NCBI RefSeq assembly: GCF_041435115.1
Contig: NZ_CP108046.1
Span: 4,278,001 to 4,342,000, forward strand
DNA from: Streptomyces sp. NBC_00289
GTDB lineage: Bacteria > Actinomycetota > Actinomycetes > Streptomycetales > Streptomycetaceae
Length of the DNA stretch: 64,000 nt
Direction of reading: 5' to 3'
The position numbers and the translations under genes are program-made. Shown in pieces: positions 31,201 to 37,600 of the stretch; position 1 is the first letter of the stretch; every line of letters starts with the position of its first letter. A model generated the notes under the pieces. The model was not told the origin of the DNA. It was given only the letters and a program-made list of their open reading frames with translations, and did no database searches.

Positions 31201-32775
<1,575 letters not shown>

Positions 32776-32834
32776 GGTTTGCCTTCCGGCGGTGAGCAAG
32801 GGTGTCTGGGGTCGATTCTACCGGGGGCCGGAGT

Positions 32835-32971: not shown

Positions 32972-33000
32972 TTGGACGGGGACCCGCTCCCGTGCATACT
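32972..33000 (+). promoter_or_regulatory. Promoter for the chorismate mutase leader transcript
   Basis: TTGGAC (32972-32977) and CATACT (32995-33000) are separated by exactly 17 bp. The -10 element ends 7 nt before the leader ATG at 33008, so the transcript would begin at or next to that ATG (leaderless). Confidence 0.65.
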
Positions 33001-33007
33001 GGGCCCC

Positions 33008-33079
33008 ATGCTCACGCACCCGACCTTCCTCTTTACCTATGGCAACCGGCCCACCGGCTGCCATGGTCGTGCTGCTTGA
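33008..33079 (+). CDS. Leader peptide for attenuation of chorismate mutase
   Basis: A 23-residue frame, MLTHPTFLFTYGNRPTGCHG then RAA, with two Phe and one Tyr codon in the run TTC-CTC-TTT-ACC-TAT (33026-33040). TTT and TAT are rare codons in this genome. A small hairpin (GGCA..TGCC, 33041-33062) begins immediately after the Tyr codon, and a 15-bp intrinsic terminator starts 21 bp after the stop. The arrangement is that of a Phe/Tyr-sensing attenuator: stalling at Phe/Tyr codons when these amino acids are scarce would favour an alternative pairing and read-through into chorismate mutase. This is inferred from sequence alone. Confidence 0.75.
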   Translation: MLTHPTFLFTYGNRPTGCHGRAA

Positions 33080-33099
33080 GCAACTGACAAGCGACTTCC

Positions 33100-33142
33100 C
33101 AGGCGCCCCGGGCCGACAAGGCCCGGGGCGCCTGTCGTTTTC
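33100..33142 (+). terminator. Attenuator terminator upstream of chorismate mutase
   Basis: CAGGCGCCCCGGGCC (33100-33114) and GGCCCGGGGCGCCTG (33120-33134) form a perfect 15-bp stem with loop GACAA, followed by TCGTTTTCC. Part of its left arm and loop (GGGCCG, 33110-33115) is complementary to CGGCCC at 33047-33052 in the leader, offering a possible antiterminator. Confidence 0.85.
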
Positions 33143-33188
33143 CCGGGTCCTGCCGTTCCGGGGCAGCCGTCCTCCAAAGGAGCCCCCT

Positions 33189-33470
33189 GTGACCGCGATC
33201 GACGTGACCGGCGCCCGTACCCCCGAGGCCGCCGAGGTGATCGGTGACGCCCGTGCGCGCATCGACGCGCTCGACGACCGGATCATCGGCCTCGTCCACG
33301 AACGGATGGCCGTGTCCGCCGTCATCCAGGACGCCCGGATCGCCTCCGGTGGCCGACGCGTGAACCTCTCCCGCGAGATGGAGGTCCTCGGCCACTACAG
33401 GGAGGCGCTGGACAGGCCCGGCACGTCCCTCGCCATGACGCTCCTCGAGCTGTGCCGCGGTCGCATCTGA
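33189..33470 (+). CDS. Chorismate mutase (AroQ type)
   Basis: A 93-residue all-helical chorismate mutase converting chorismate to prephenate, the first committed step to Phe and Tyr. The AroQ helix 1 pattern is visible in ARARIDALDDRIIGLVHERM (about 21-40), followed by the VSAVIQDARI and REMEVLGHYREAL helices. The GTG at 33189 follows AAAGGAG. It sits downstream of a leader peptide and terminator, matching end-product control by aromatic amino acids. It is a free-standing domain, not fused to dehydratase or dehydrogenase. Confidence 0.88.
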   Translation: MTAIDVTGARTPEAAEVIGDARARIDALDDRIIGLVHERMAVSAVIQDARIASGGRRVNLSREMEVLGHYREALDRPGTSLAMTLLELCRGRI

Positions 33471-34113: not shown

Positions 34114-35928
34114 CTACTTCTTCGGCGGTACCGCCGGCATCCCCAGGAACGGCAGCCGCAGCGCGCCGAACGCCTCCGCGGGGACGGCCGGCGTCTTGGG
34201 CTCGACCGGCTGAAGGCGTTCGTAGGCCGCCGCCTGCGCCGGCCGCGGGTCGGTCTCGCCCTTGTTCGGCCAGTACGACATCGCCCGCTCGGCCTGGGCG
34301 GTGATCGTCAGGGACGGATTCACTCCCAGGTTCGCCGAGACCGCGGCGCCGTCGACGACCGAGATGCCGGAGTGTCCGTACAGGCGGTGGTACGGGTCGA
34401 TCACGCCGGTCTCGCGGGACGAACCGATCGGACAGCCGCCGAGGAAGTGGGCGGTGAGCGGGGTGCCCATCAGCTCGCCCACGTTCGAGCCGGCGAAGCC
34501 GTTGATCTCGGCGGCGATGGCGGAGGCGCCCTCGGAGGCGGCCTTGATCTGCTTGGGGTTCGGTGAGCCGTGGCCCTGCCTGGCCGTCAGCAGTCCCTTG
34601 CCCACGCCGTCCGGCTTGAGATGGGTCGTCAGGGAGTTGTCCAGGGACTGCATCACCAGACCGATGATGGTCCGCTCGGACCAGCGGCGGTTGGAGAGGG
34701 AGCGCAGGACCAGGACGGGGTGCCGCGCGGCATTGCGCAGCCAGGCCGCGGCCCGTGAGGTGCCCTCCGCGTACGGGACCTGGAGGATCGACAGGCCGCC
34801 CATCGAGTTGGAGCCCTTGCCGTAGCGGACCGGCTCGATGTGGGTGTTCGCGTCGGGGTGGATCGAGGAGGTGATGGCGACCCCGCGGGTGAAGTCGGCC
34901 TTCGGTTCGCCGGTGGCCCTGCGGTAGCGCCGGTCGCTGGTCTGCGCGCCCACCAGCGCCTCGGAGTTGGTGCGGGTCAGCTCGCCCAGCCGGTCCGAGA
35001 CGTGAGGGAGCTGGCCGCCCGCCTTCATGCGGTGCAGCAGGGTCTGGGTGCCGTAGGTGCCGGCGGCGAGGACGACCCGGCGGGCCTTGTAGGTCCGGCC
35101 CCGTCCCTTGCGGCGGTCGTCGGTGGGGAGGGTGGCCACGGCGTAGCCGCCCTGTGAGTCGTCGGTGACCGACACGACCGTGGTCAGCGGGTGCACGACC
35201 GCCCCCGCCTTCTCGGCGAGGTACAGGTAGTTCTCGTTGAGGGTGTTCTTCGCGCCGTGCCGGCAGCCGGTCATGCACTCGCCGCACTCGGTGCAGGCCT
35301 TGCGGTCGGGGCCCGCGCCCCCGAAGTAGGGGTCCGCGACCCGCTCGCCGGGCGTCGCCCGCACCGTCTTGTCGGCGTCCTCGCCGTCGCCGAAGAACAC
35401 CCCGACCGGCGCCATGTGGAAGGTGTCGCCGACGCCCATCCGCTCGGCGGCCGCCTTGAGGTGGACGTCGGACGGCGTCATGGTCGGGTTGAGCCGTACG
35501 CCGAGCATGCGCCGCGCCTGGTCGTAGTACGGCTCCAGCTCCGCCTGCCAGTCCGTGATGTCACGCCACTGCGGGTCCTCGAAGAACGGCTTCGGCGGTA
35601 CGTAGAGGGTGTTGGCGTAGTTGAGGGAGCCGCCGCCGACGCCCGCGCCCGCCAGGACCATGACGTTGCCCAGCAGGTGGATGCGCTGGAGGCCGTACAT
35701 GCCGAGCCTGGGCGCCCAGAGGTAGTTCTTCAGGTCCCAGGAGTTCTTGGGCAGCGTGCCGGGGGTGAAGCGGCGGCCCGCCTCCAGCACACCGACCCGG
35801 TAGCCCTTCTCCGTCAGGCGCAGGGCGGTGACGGAACCGCCGAAGCCCGAGCCGACGACGATGACGTCGTAGTCATGGTCGCGGCCGTCGTCCTCGCCCT
35901 GGTCGCGGACGGAGTTCTCCTGTGACAC
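34114..35928 (-). CDS. GMC-type FAD oxidoreductase, cholesterol-oxidase-like
   Basis: A 604-residue flavoenzyme. The FAD-binding Rossmann motif VIVVGSGFGGSVTALRL (about residues 22-38) is followed by the second FAD-binding segment LAGAGVGGGSLNYANT. A Cys-rich segment CTECGECMTGCRHGAKNTL (around 215-233) resembles a ferredoxin-type cluster-binding site found in one branch of cholesterol-oxidase-like proteins. The C-terminal GMC region has FLGGCPIGSS and GLNPSLTI-like sequence (NLGVNPSLTITAQAERA). There is no export signal. The GTG at 35928 follows GAGGAG. It follows the SSADH gene by 58 bp on the same strand. Confidence 0.85.
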   Translation of the reverse strand: MSQENSVRDQGEDDGRDHDYDVIVVGSGFGGSVTALRLTEKGYRVGVLEAGRRFTPGTLPKNSWDLKNYLWAPRLGMYGLQRIHLLGNVMVLAGAGVGGGSLNYANTLYVPPKPFFEDPQWRDITDWQAELEPYYDQARRMLGVRLNPTMTPSDVHLKAAAERMGVGDTFHMAPVGVFFGDGEDADKTVRATPGERVADPYFGGAGPDRKACTECGECMTGCRHGAKNTLNENYLYLAEKAGAVVHPLTTVVSVTDDSQGGYAVATLPTDDRRKGRGRTYKARRVVLAAGTYGTQTLLHRMKAGGQLPHVSDRLGELTRTNSEALVGAQTSDRRYRRATGEPKADFTRGVAITSSIHPDANTHIEPVRYGKGSNSMGGLSILQVPYAEGTSRAAAWLRNAARHPVLVLRSLSNRRWSERTIIGLVMQSLDNSLTTHLKPDGVGKGLLTARQGHGSPNPKQIKAASEGASAIAAEINGFAGSNVGELMGTPLTAHFLGGCPIGSSRETGVIDPYHRLYGHSGISVVDGAAVSANLGVNPSLTITAQAERAMSYWPNKGETDPRPAQAAAYERLQPVEPKTPAVPAEAFGALRLPFLGMPAVPPKK

Positions 35929-35986
35929 GTGCTCTCCTCGTTGAGAACGGGTGCTGCCCGGGCCGGCAGGACCGGCCCGGCAGGGC

Positions 35987-37600
35987 CTAGCGGAAGCGGA
36001 ACGCCTTCATCAGTCGCAGACTCCGGCTCATGAACGCCGCGTACTTCTCGTCGTCCATGCCCATGGACGGAGCCATCGGCAACAGCCGCTGCTGCGCGAC
36101 CGTCTGTGCCTCGGTGTACTTGAGGATGCCCTCGGAGCCGTGCCGGCGTCCGAGGCCGGAGTCCTTCATGCCGCCCATCGGCGACTGGACGCTGCCGTAC
36201 GCGGGCGCGTAGCCCTCGTTGACGTTCACCGTCCCCGTGCGCAGGCGGGAGGCGACCTCGCGACCGCGCCGGCCGTCCTTCGTCCAGACCGAGGAGTTCA
36301 GGCCGTACGGCGTGGAGTTGGCGAGCTCGACCGCCTCGTCCTCGGTCGTGAAGCGGTAGATCGACACGACCGGGCCGAAGGTCTCCTCGGAGCAGACCGA
36401 CATGGGGGCCTCGACGCCGTCGAGGATGGTCGGCTCGAAGAAGTAGGGGCCGATGTCCGGGCGGGCGACGCCGCCGGCGACGAGCCTGGCGCCCTTGGCG
36501 ACCGCCTCGTCGACGTGCCGGGTGACCGTCTCCAGCTGGCGTTCGCCCACCAGCGAGCCCATGTCGGCGCCGTAGGCGAGGGAGGTGCCGAGCCGCATCG
36601 CCTTCGTGCGGGCGGCGAAGCGCTCGAGGAAGGCGTCCGCGATCGACTCGTGGACGTACAACCGCTCGATGGAGATGCACAGTTGGCCGGCGGAGGAGAA
36701 GCAGGCGCGGACCGCTCCCGCGGCCGCCTTCTCGATGTCGGCGTCCTCGAGCACCACCATGGCGTTCTTGCCGCCCAGTTCGAGGGAGACACCGATCAGG
36801 CGGGCGGCCGCGCCCTGGGCGACCTCGCGGCCGGTGCGGGTGGAGCCGGTGAAGGAGACGTAGTCGGCGTGCCGGACGATCTCCGGGCCCACGACGGGGC
36901 CCTCGCCGAGGACGACCTGGAAGACGTCGGCGGGCAGACCGGCCTCGATCAGCAGGTCCCGCGCCCACAGGGCGGTCAGGCAGGTCTCCGTGTCCGGCTT
37001 CATGACGACGGCGTTGCCCGCGACGAAGGCCGGCAGCGCGTCGCCGACCGACAGCTCCAGCGGGTAGTTCCAGGGCGCTATCTGGCCGACGACTCCGCGC
37101 GGGTGGCGCAGTTCGGTGACCTTCGTGAGGGTCGGGACGGCGCCGGCGTGCCGCTTGGGCCTGAGATAGGCAGGGGCCCTGCGGCCGTAGTGGCGGGCCG
37201 CGACGGCCACGGCCTGGACCTCCTCATGGGCGTGCAGCCGCGCCTTGCCGGTCTCCAGCTGGATCAGGTCGAGCACCTCGGCCTGGCGCTCCAGCACCAG
37301 GTCGTGGAAGCGCAACAGGACGGCGGCGCGCTGCCGTACCGGTGTCCGCGCCCACACCTGCTGGGCCGCGCGGGCCGACTCGTAGGCCTTCTGTACGTCC
37401 TCGGGCGTGGACTCGGGCAGGTCGGCCAGCTTCTCGCCGGTGAACGGCGAGTGGTTGGCGGTCCGTCCGGAGCCGACGACTCCCTTGGTCAGCTGGGCGA
37501 CCAGCTCGGGGGTCACCACGTCGGCGGCGGTACGAGCGCCCTCCGGAGCGGGGGCGAGAGGATTGGTGCCGGTCTTGGCCGGGGCCTGCGCGTCCGTCAT
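35987..37600 (-). CDS. gabD2: Succinate-semialdehyde dehydrogenase (NAD(P)+)
   Basis: A 537-residue aldehyde dehydrogenase closest in pattern to the GabD2 group. It should oxidise succinate semialdehyde to succinate, feeding the TCA cycle. Typical elements: PWNYPLELSVGDALPAFVAG, the Glu motif LELGGKNAM, catalytic Cys in SAGQLCISIER and the C-terminal NVNEGYAPAYGSVQSPMGG. The ATG at 37600 starts MTDAQAPAKTG. It is upstream of the GMC oxidoreductase gene in the same direction (58 bp), suggesting co-transcription. Specificity among related aldehydes is not proven by sequence. Confidence 0.88.
   Translation of the reverse strand: MTDAQAPAKTGTNPLAPAPEGARTAADVVTPELVAQLTKGVVGSGRTANHSPFTGEKLADLPESTPEDVQKAYESARAAQQVWARTPVRQRAAVLLRFHDLVLERQAEVLDLIQLETGKARLHAHEEVQAVAVAARHYGRRAPAYLRPKRHAGAVPTLTKVTELRHPRGVVGQIAPWNYPLELSVGDALPAFVAGNAVVMKPDTETCLTALWARDLLIEAGLPADVFQVVLGEGPVVGPEIVRHADYVSFTGSTRTGREVAQGAAARLIGVSLELGGKNAMVVLEDADIEKAAAGAVRACFSSAGQLCISIERLYVHESIADAFLERFAARTKAMRLGTSLAYGADMGSLVGERQLETVTRHVDEAVAKGARLVAGGVARPDIGPYFFEPTILDGVEAPMSVCSEETFGPVVSIYRFTTEDEAVELANSTPYGLNSSVWTKDGRRGREVASRLRTGTVNVNEGYAPAYGSVQSPMGGMKDSGLGRRHGSEGILKYTEAQTVAQQRLLPMAPSMGMDDEKYAAFMSRSLRLMKAFRFR

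What the first reader, a model, noticed from the sequence alone, without database searches (positions are those of the whole stretch)
33008..33188. Aromatic amino-acid attenuator in front of chorismate mutase
A 23-codon leader with TTC-CTC-TTT-ACC-TAT, including rare TTT and TAT codons, is followed directly by a hairpin and then a perfect 15-bp terminator with a T-tract, then chorismate mutase. CGGCCC in the leader can pair with GGGCCG of the terminator, giving a plausible antiterminator. This is a textbook ribosome-mediated attenuator layout for Phe/Tyr in a Streptomyces gene where I do not recall one being described.
Basis: partly seen in the sequence, partly recalled or inferred. Interest (0 to 1): 0.76.

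Follow-up and report, generated by a model that had tools for sequence, protein, structure and literature searches.

The report
Phe/Tyr attenuator before chorismate mutase
A short leader reading frame with phenylalanine and tyrosine codons, a leader hairpin, a competing antiterminator and a terminator lie in front of the chorismate mutase gene and are conserved across the streptomycete family, so the cell very probably senses shortage of these amino acids by ribosome stalling and then lets the gene be transcribed.

Summary
A 23-codon ORF (33008-33079, MLTHPTFLFTYGNRPTGCHGRAA*) starts 7 nt after a conserved CATACT box, as on a leaderless mRNA. Its TTC, TTT and TAT codons stand just before an in-ORF hairpin (P1); a 15-bp terminator (33100-33134) and chorismate mutase (33189-33470) follow. 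The leader core lies upstream of chorismate mutase in 128 of 129 relatives read; the 129th contig is cut short. A covariance model hits once per genome in 213 of 227 family genomes with a chorismate mutase match and 0 of 70 without. P2, terminator and antiterminator show compensatory changes. Aromatic leaders also precede chorismate mutase in five other actinomycete families and DAHP synthase in a sixth. Ten searches of an open-licence library gave no report of a chorismate mutase attenuator in actinomycetes; the closest case is C. glutamicum aroR-aroF. No expression data were available. Verdict: new member of a known kind, very likely working.

The parts
32972..33000 (+). Promoter-like pair TTGGAC (32972-32977), 17 nt, CATACT (32995-33000); 7 nt before the leader ATG, so a leaderless transcript is predicted
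   Evidence: Read from the sequence. In 129 leaders (128 relatives plus window) the box is CATACT 114, CATAAT 9, GTACAC 3, TATACT 2, none 1; an in-frame start codon lies 6-8 nt downstream in 128 of the 128 with a box; TTG[GA] lies at -35 distance in 90 of 128. The strict E. coli-type scan finds no promoter here.
33008..33079 (+). Leader peptide ORF, MLTHPTFLFTYGNRPTGCHGRAA, stop TGA
   Evidence: leader found in 79 of 80 relatives (L079 contig is cut) and 49 of 49 further loci; same strand and 127-347 nt before the chorismate mutase start in 128 of 129.
33026..33040 (+). Regulatory codons TTC (Phe7), CTC, TTT (Phe9), ACC, TAT (Tyr11)
   Evidence: TTC 78/80, TTT 80/80, TAT 80/80. both synonyms allowed: 70 of 96 listed rows are TTT+TAT (leader type); of the other 26, 25 are TTC+TAC and one TTT+TAC (counted by eye).
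33035..33067 (+). Hairpin P1 (segment 1:2): ACC-U-AUGGC pairs GCCAU-GGU, inner CCGG:CCGG; starts at the Tyr codon, inside the ORF
   Evidence: 98.8% of cells paired in 40 sequences, 5 of 8 pairs invariant, no change on both sides.
33071..33095 (+). Hairpin P2, over the leader stop codon; apical stem of the antiterminator
   Evidence: Changes on both sides in 4 of 5 pairs; GCUUG/CAAGC replaced by GUCUG/CAGAC, GCGUG/CACGC or GCUCG/CGAGC in relatives.
33047..33115 (+). Antiterminator: 33047-52:33110-115, 33056-58:33105-107, 33060-62:33102-104, 33064-66:33099-101, capped by P2
33100..33143 (+). Intrinsic terminator, 15-bp stem 33100-33134, loop GACAA, tail TCGTTTTCC
   Evidence: changes on both sides in 5 of 15 pairs.
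33176..33182 (+). Shine-Dalgarno AAAGGAG of chorismate mutase
   Evidence: Read from the sequence.
33189..33470 (+). Chorismate mutase (AroQ type), 93 aa, start GTG
   Evidence: nearest solved structures are Rv0948c-type chorismate mutases.

Best explanation
It is a ribosome-mediated transcription attenuator that controls chorismate mutase in response to charged tRNA-Phe and tRNA-Tyr. Transcription starts at or next to the leader ATG and ribosomes load on the leaderless end. With enough Phe and Tyr the ribosome passes codons 7-11, P1 can form, the 5' arm of the terminator stays free and transcription stops near 33140. When Phe or Tyr is short the ribosome stalls at UUC, UUU or UAU and covers the 5' arm of P1; the leader segment 33047-33066 then pairs with the 5' arm of the terminator, capped by P2, and RNA polymerase reads into chorismate mutase. 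Shown here: ORF, codons, hairpins, their conservation and compensatory changes, one model hit per genome and tight co-occurrence with the enzyme gene. Inferred: start site, translation, stalling, premature termination, amino acid response.
For: Codon conservation. One model hit per genome in 213 of 297 family genomes, 15 of 17 genera; crossed by eye these are 213 of 227 genomes with a chorismate mutase match and 0 of 70 without. Ribosome-mask folding of the window: antiterminator occupancy 0.79 at Phe7, 0.82 at Phe9, 0.61 at Tyr11, 0.00 at codons 13-20; P1 0.99 without ribosome. In 104 distinct family sequences: mean 0.89 (minimum 0.75) at Phe9, 0.68 at Tyr11, 0.03 three codons later. Shuffling the leader lowers occupancy from a mean of 0.86 (75 cases) to 0.36 (500 shuffles of 25 cases; 8% of them reach 0.75). 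Native leader/terminator pairs are stronger on average than re-dealt pairs, 0 of 1000 shuffles as good. Compensatory changes exceed column shuffles for the antiterminator on four of five measures and for P1/P2/terminator on five of five (near-zero counts of shuffles, but 10 of 500 for one antiterminator measure). The enzyme makes the common precursor of the two amino acids coded in the leader (established pathway knowledge).
Against: No RNA or expression data. T-tract weak. The folding is equilibrium and uses an assumed footprint (17 nt before to 12 nt after the first A-site base). Without any ribosome 39 of 104 sequences already show antiterminator occupancy of 0.2 or more, and with the ribosome at the stop codon the mean is still 0.57, only 13 of 104 below 0.4; the window itself is better behaved (0.00 and 0.25), although codons 2-6 also give 0.59-0.66. 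In one search one measure, further pair types, is reached by 86 of 500 shuffles, and the outer antiterminator helix is paired in only 78.2% of cells since the pairing shifts by a base between lineages. In one search leaders of the GGACC group pair slightly better with GGGCC-type arms (-25.11) than with their own (-24.38). The shuffles do not remove relatedness. P1 has no compensatory pair. Codon changes of the S. coelicolor ilvB leader had no regulatory effect in earlier work (PMC1262725, text read), so a convincing leader need not act by classical attenuation.
Confidence: 0.9

Rival explanations
1. A conserved intrinsic terminator that only sets a constitutive fraction of read-through; the ORF is incidental.
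For: The terminator core is nearly invariant; generic terminators of this shape are common in actinomycete genomes, as partial model hits at positions 75-109 show.
Against: Does not explain the conserved Phe/Tyr codons, the in-frame start codon 6-8 nt after the -10 box, P1, P2 and the antiterminator. guaA is divergent, so there is no upstream gene on this strand close by to insulate against.
Confidence: 0.04
2. Translational rather than transcriptional attenuation, or a Rho-dependent version, with the same leader sensing Phe/Tyr.
For: The T-tract is weak. In the window the GGAG of the chorismate mutase Shine-Dalgarno pairs with CUCC just before it inside a stem downstream of the terminator. 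Cysteine genes of M. smegmatis are said to be under translation attenuation (passage in PMC13236596).
Against: A GC-rich hairpin of at least 13 pairs with a T-containing tail sits between leader and gene in most relatives parsed. CUCC within 14 nt before GGAG occurs in only 8 of 105 relatives with GGAG near the start, and the Shine-Dalgarno begins 42 nt after the terminator stem, outside the competing structures.
Confidence: 0.04
3. A small-molecule or protein-binding RNA element, or a stand-alone small RNA; the conserved UUUACCUAUGGC would be a binding site.
For: The UUU third base is invariant in 80 of 80 though unpaired in the models; the core is conserved beyond what codon identity needs.
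Against: No Rfam family at gathering threshold anywhere in the window, only far sub-threshold matches here. Codon content shifts between Phe, Tyr and Trp across families while staying aromatic, as expected for codon sensing.
Confidence: 0.02

Closest known systems
Corynebacterium glutamicum aroR-aroF attenuator (Neshat et al. 2014, not read; described in passages of PMC11802643, and PMC4046766)
   Same: Actinomycete leader peptide with Phe-Tyr-Phe before a shikimate-pathway gene; stalling raises transcription under Phe limitation.
   Different: Controls DAHP synthase, not chorismate mutase; reported to respond to Phe and not Tyr; its RNA structures were not compared here.
Escherichia coli pheL-pheA attenuator (passage in PMC11802643)
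   Same: Phe-sensing leader before an enzyme with chorismate mutase activity; same mechanism class.
   Different: Bifunctional enzyme; leader with a ribosome-binding site and many Phe codons (recalled); no Rfam leader family matches here.
Streptomyces trpL1-trpE, trpL2-trpS, leuL, ilvL and others (passages of PMC8079986 with Table 4; PMC1262725, part 1 of 3 and passages)
   Same: Mostly leaderless leader peptides; several with GC-rich terminators; trp elements share GGCC-type competing triples.
   Different: Other amino acids. The 8 leaders listed for S. lividans include none at chorismate mutase; the 2005 survey states that no conserved RNA structures were seen upstream of Phe or Tyr operons in Actinobacteria.
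Mycobacterium tuberculosis ilvB1 uORF attenuator (passages of PMC13236596)
   Same: Actinobacterial uORF with regulatory codons, antiterminator and terminator, with footprint-masking logic.
   Different: Branched-chain amino acids; different gene.

Membership tests
Ribosome-mediated transcription attenuator (trp/phe type) | Short leader ORF with codons for the end product of the controlled pathway | tested here: met
Ribosome-mediated transcription attenuator (trp/phe type) | Intrinsic terminator between leader and structural gene | tested here: met
   T-tract weak
Ribosome-mediated transcription attenuator (trp/phe type) | Antiterminator exclusive with terminator, released by a stall at the regulatory codons | tested here: met
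   By folding only; compensatory changes. Occupancy at the stop codon is not low in relatives
Ribosome-mediated transcription attenuator (trp/phe type) | Leader is translated | tested here: inconclusive
   In-frame start at a fixed distance from the -10 box and conserved codons argue for it; no ribosome data
Ribosome-mediated transcription attenuator (trp/phe type) | Premature RNA ends at the terminator and read-through rises on starvation | not testable with these tools
   Needs Term-seq and reporters
C. glutamicum aroR-aroF type | Controls DAHP synthase | tested here: not met
   Gene here is chorismate mutase; DAHP synthase leaders were seen in family f17
Rfam leader and riboswitch families | Match at gathering score | tested here: not met
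   0 matches in the 64-kb window

The most novel reading that the evidence does not exclude
The element is one branch of a class-wide aromatic-attenuator regulon of actinomycetes with a recurring leader core (FxFTYG, FFYG, FYGYRP, FWYGDGP) that guards chorismate mutase in some families (streptomycetes, a Mycobacterium-like genus, f31, f35, f37, f46) and its partner DAHP synthase in others (f17, corynebacteria), so that aromatic flow is set by ribosome stalling at one or the other member of this enzyme pair.
Probability: 0.45. Interest if true: 0.66.

Novelty: new member of a known kind. Interest (0 to 1): 0.52.

Why it matters
It gives streptomycetes a concrete, testable mechanism for Phe/Tyr control of the chorismate branch point, where a 2005 survey saw none and the S. 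lividans list of leaders has none. Chorismate, prephenate and Tyr feed many antibiotics (general knowledge), so deleting the terminator is a simple engineering handle. The conserved rare UUU and UAU codons also make the role of synonymous codon choice in stalling testable.

Tried and rejected
Considered and rejected: constitutive terminator, riboswitch or small RNA, translational attenuation (see rivals). Class-wide model hits (158 of 394 genomes at E<=0.001) were not taken at face value: of 20 places outside the family that I fetched from its list, 12 had an aromatic leader (2 before chorismate mutase, 10 before DAHP synthase) and 8 (L165, L166, L167, L168, L169, L171, L174, L177) showed no such leader and look like plain terminators; L171 is the opposite strand of a DAHP synthase attenuator region (L251). 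The remaining hits were not sorted.

The 14 family genomes with a chorismate mutase match but no model hit: G220's gene lies at base 105 of its contig; two of four in genus g5 and G238 carry a diverged leader and terminator that the model missed at the 1e-9 cut-off (MSSFDVTRSFSYGTG..., MSSFGVTRSFSYGTG..., MLRHARLFTYGTG...); G209 of g14 shows none; two g5 and seven g14 genomes were not read. In one search no leader was seen in f18 (0 of 12) or f12 (0 of 1), and the enzyme motif was not located in 3 loci (f14 two, f21 one). In a broad f4 sample only 6 of 30 chorismate mutase loci have the core, one of them (L284) probably chance, against 16 of 21 best-scoring f4 loci. The search patterns required TTTA[CT]CTATGG, so codon conservation is claimed only. 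The set of 128 is 127 relatives plus the window's own locus L081; L079 (cut) and L127 (imperfect terminator stem) are not in it. The single occupancy of 0.00 is L127, whose terminator was mis-parsed; the other 74 are 0.70 or more.

Searches used narrower parsers (one search missed loci that lay on the other strand); searches replaced them. An antiterminator string was one base off in the outer helix and was corrected before use.

Full report
What is there. On the + strand, next to the divergent guaA (31201-32799), the window holds a promoter-like pair (TTGGAC, 17 nt, CATACT), a 23-codon ORF that begins 7 nt after CATACT, a hairpin inside that ORF starting at its Tyr codon, a 15-bp terminator and a 93-aa chorismate mutase. 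The whole stretch folds far better than shuffles (z -5.73).

Conservation. A scan of GTDB species genomes with the protein kept the best 80 loci, nearly all named Streptomyces. A leader with an F[T/I]YG core was found upstream in 79 of 80; the remaining contig is cut 140 bases upstream. Relative to Tyr, the codons are TTC 78/80, TTT 80/80, TAT 80/80 and GGC 80/80 (window included). In 49 further loci of the family, 20 of them chosen for divergence, the core was present in 49 of 49, always as TTTACCTATGG although both synonyms were allowed. In 128 of these 129 relatives it is on the same strand, 127-347 nt before the chorismate mutase start; L079 is the exception. A pattern that allows either synonym at each place, run on 99 genomes of the order, listed 96 places: 70 are TTT+TAT, and of the other 26, 25 are TTC+TAC and one TTT+TAC (counted by eye). 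So the rare synonyms look selected. The third base of UAU pairs in P1; that of UUU is unpaired in the models and is unexplained. Two family genomes (G261, G212) have His or Phe in place of the Tyr.

Promoter. In 129 leaders (128 relatives plus the window) the box before the start codon is CATACT in 114, CATAAT 9, GTACAC 3, TATACT 2, none 1, and an in-frame ATG or GTG follows at 6-8 nt in all 128 with a box. This fits a leaderless leader mRNA, as described for most other S. lividans leaders (PMC8079986, passages), and supports the reading frame.

Competing structures. The nascent RNA folds in two ways. With the full 5' end P1 forms. When the 5' side of P1 is removed or shortened, 33047-33066 pairs with the 5' arm of the terminator, closed by P2 over the leader stop codon. 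All 68 distinct sequences (from 127 relatives and the own locus) fold this way when the RNA 5' of the Gly codon is left out, with at least 10 of 14 terminator-arm bases paired to the leader; their mean z is -2.54, the weakest -0.6. In divergent genera the sequence changes but the pairing stays, for example UGGUCC:GGACCG for CGGCCC:GGGCCG and several P2 versions. Counts on 40 sequences: antiterminator 88.9% of cells paired, 15 cells changed on both sides against 3.1 in shuffles, though 86 of 500 shuffles reach its number of further pair types; P1+P2+terminator 96.1%, 28 cells against 7.3, with no both-sided change in P1. Native arm pairs average -26.59 kcal/mol against -25.54 (sd 0.23) for re-dealt partners, 0 of 1000 as good; but leaders of the GGACC group do slightly better with GGGCC-type arms than with their own. 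Relatedness of the species is not removed by these controls.

Ribosome position. Masking a ribosome footprint codon by codon, the window's antiterminator occupancy is 0.79-0.82 with the A-site at codons 7-10, 0.61 at Tyr11, 0.59 at codon 12, zero at codons 13-20 and 0.21-0.31 from codon 21 to the stop. Codons 2-6 give 0.59-0.66, so a ribosome held at the start would also favour read-through. In 104 distinct family sequences the means are 0.86 (Phe7), 0.89 (Phe9), 0.68 (Tyr11), 0.03 (three codons on), 0.00 (seven on), 0.57 (stop) and 0.29 (no ribosome). The last two are against a perfectly clean switch: 39 of 104 reach 0.2 or more without a ribosome, and only 13 of 104 fall below 0.4 at the stop. 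Kinetics, which should favour P1 as the first hairpin made, is not modelled. With shuffled leaders the occupancy is 0.36 on average against 0.86 (74 of 75 cases at 0.70 or more).

Distribution. A covariance model at E<=1e-9 gives one match in each of 213 of 297 family genomes, 15 of 17 genera. Crossed by eye with the protein search on the same genomes, 213 of 227 genomes with a chorismate mutase match have it and 0 of 70 without do. Of the 14 exceptions one is a contig end, three that I read carry a diverged leader, one that I read shows none, and nine were not read. In the own genome there is one full match (144.2 bits); the other 21 listed, at 33.7 bits and below, were not examined one by one.

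Beyond the family. Two f37 genomes have YFYYG and FFYYG leaders plus a terminator before chorismate mutase. Reading 47 more upstream regions, aromatic leaders were seen before chorismate mutase in f31 (2 of 2), f35 (1 of 1), f46 (1 of 1) and f4 (16 of 21 best-scoring loci, mostly FFYGYR), but in 0 of 12 f18 and 0 of 1 f12 loci. The enzyme of one f4 locus is close to Rv0948c, so f4 is Mycobacterium-like; across f4 genera only 6 of 30 loci have the core. In f17, 29 of 30 DAHP synthase loci carry a leader, mostly of the FWRFYGYRP or FWYGDGP type, 28 of the 29 with a hairpin of 11 or more pairs. Mask folding of 13 of these is mixed: L185 peaks only at the aromatic codons; L158, L220, L221, L222, L196 and L203 are highest there but are also well above zero elsewhere; L223 is higher at its stop codon; L159 and the four f17 cases are already at 0.68-0.81 without a ribosome.

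Comparison with print. Ten searches of an open-licence full-text library listed no report of a chorismate mutase attenuator in actinomycetes; I read passages or parts of seven papers, and the library lacks most subscription papers. Neshat 2014 was not looked up; D'Halluin 2023 is not held. The mechanism is textbook and an aromatic attenuator is known at C. glutamicum aroF, so this is a new member of a known kind. What appears new is the gene, the depth of conservation, the fixed rare codons, and the recurrence across two partner enzymes.

Verdict. Very likely a functional Phe/Tyr transcription attenuator (0.9); transcription start, stalling, termination and response remain to be shown.

Noticed in passing
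L234-L263, L160-L164, L170, L172, L173, L175, L176: DAHP synthase genes of family f17 carry aromatic leader peptides (mostly FWRFYGYRP or FWYGDGP), 29 of 30 loci, 28 of those 29 with a hairpin of 11 or more pairs.
   Followed up: partly
L185-L205, L264-L293: Chorismate mutase of a Mycobacterium-like genus is preceded by a leader such as MQRRFFYGYRPAVPVV with a hairpin and terminator-like stem; rare in other genera of that family.
   Followed up: partly
33034: Third base of the Phe9 codon UUU is invariant in 80 of 80 although unpaired in the P1, antiterminator and terminator models; Phe7 is the common TTC in 78 of 80.
   Followed up: no
L182, L183: In two genomes of the genus (G261, G212) the Tyr codon of the leader is replaced by His or Phe (FWFGHGTG, FWFTFGTG) and the chorismate mutase match downstream is weak.
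   Followed up: partly
33146-33200: A second stem between terminator and chorismate mutase start appears in the minimum-energy fold and pairs the GGAG of the Shine-Dalgarno with CUCC; that CUCC is found in only 8 of 105 relatives with GGAG near the start.
   Followed up: partly
34114-37600, - strand: Downstream on the other strand lie a cholesterol-oxidase-like GMC enzyme (548 bits, below the 850-bit cut-off) and a succinic semialdehyde dehydrogenase.
   Followed up: no
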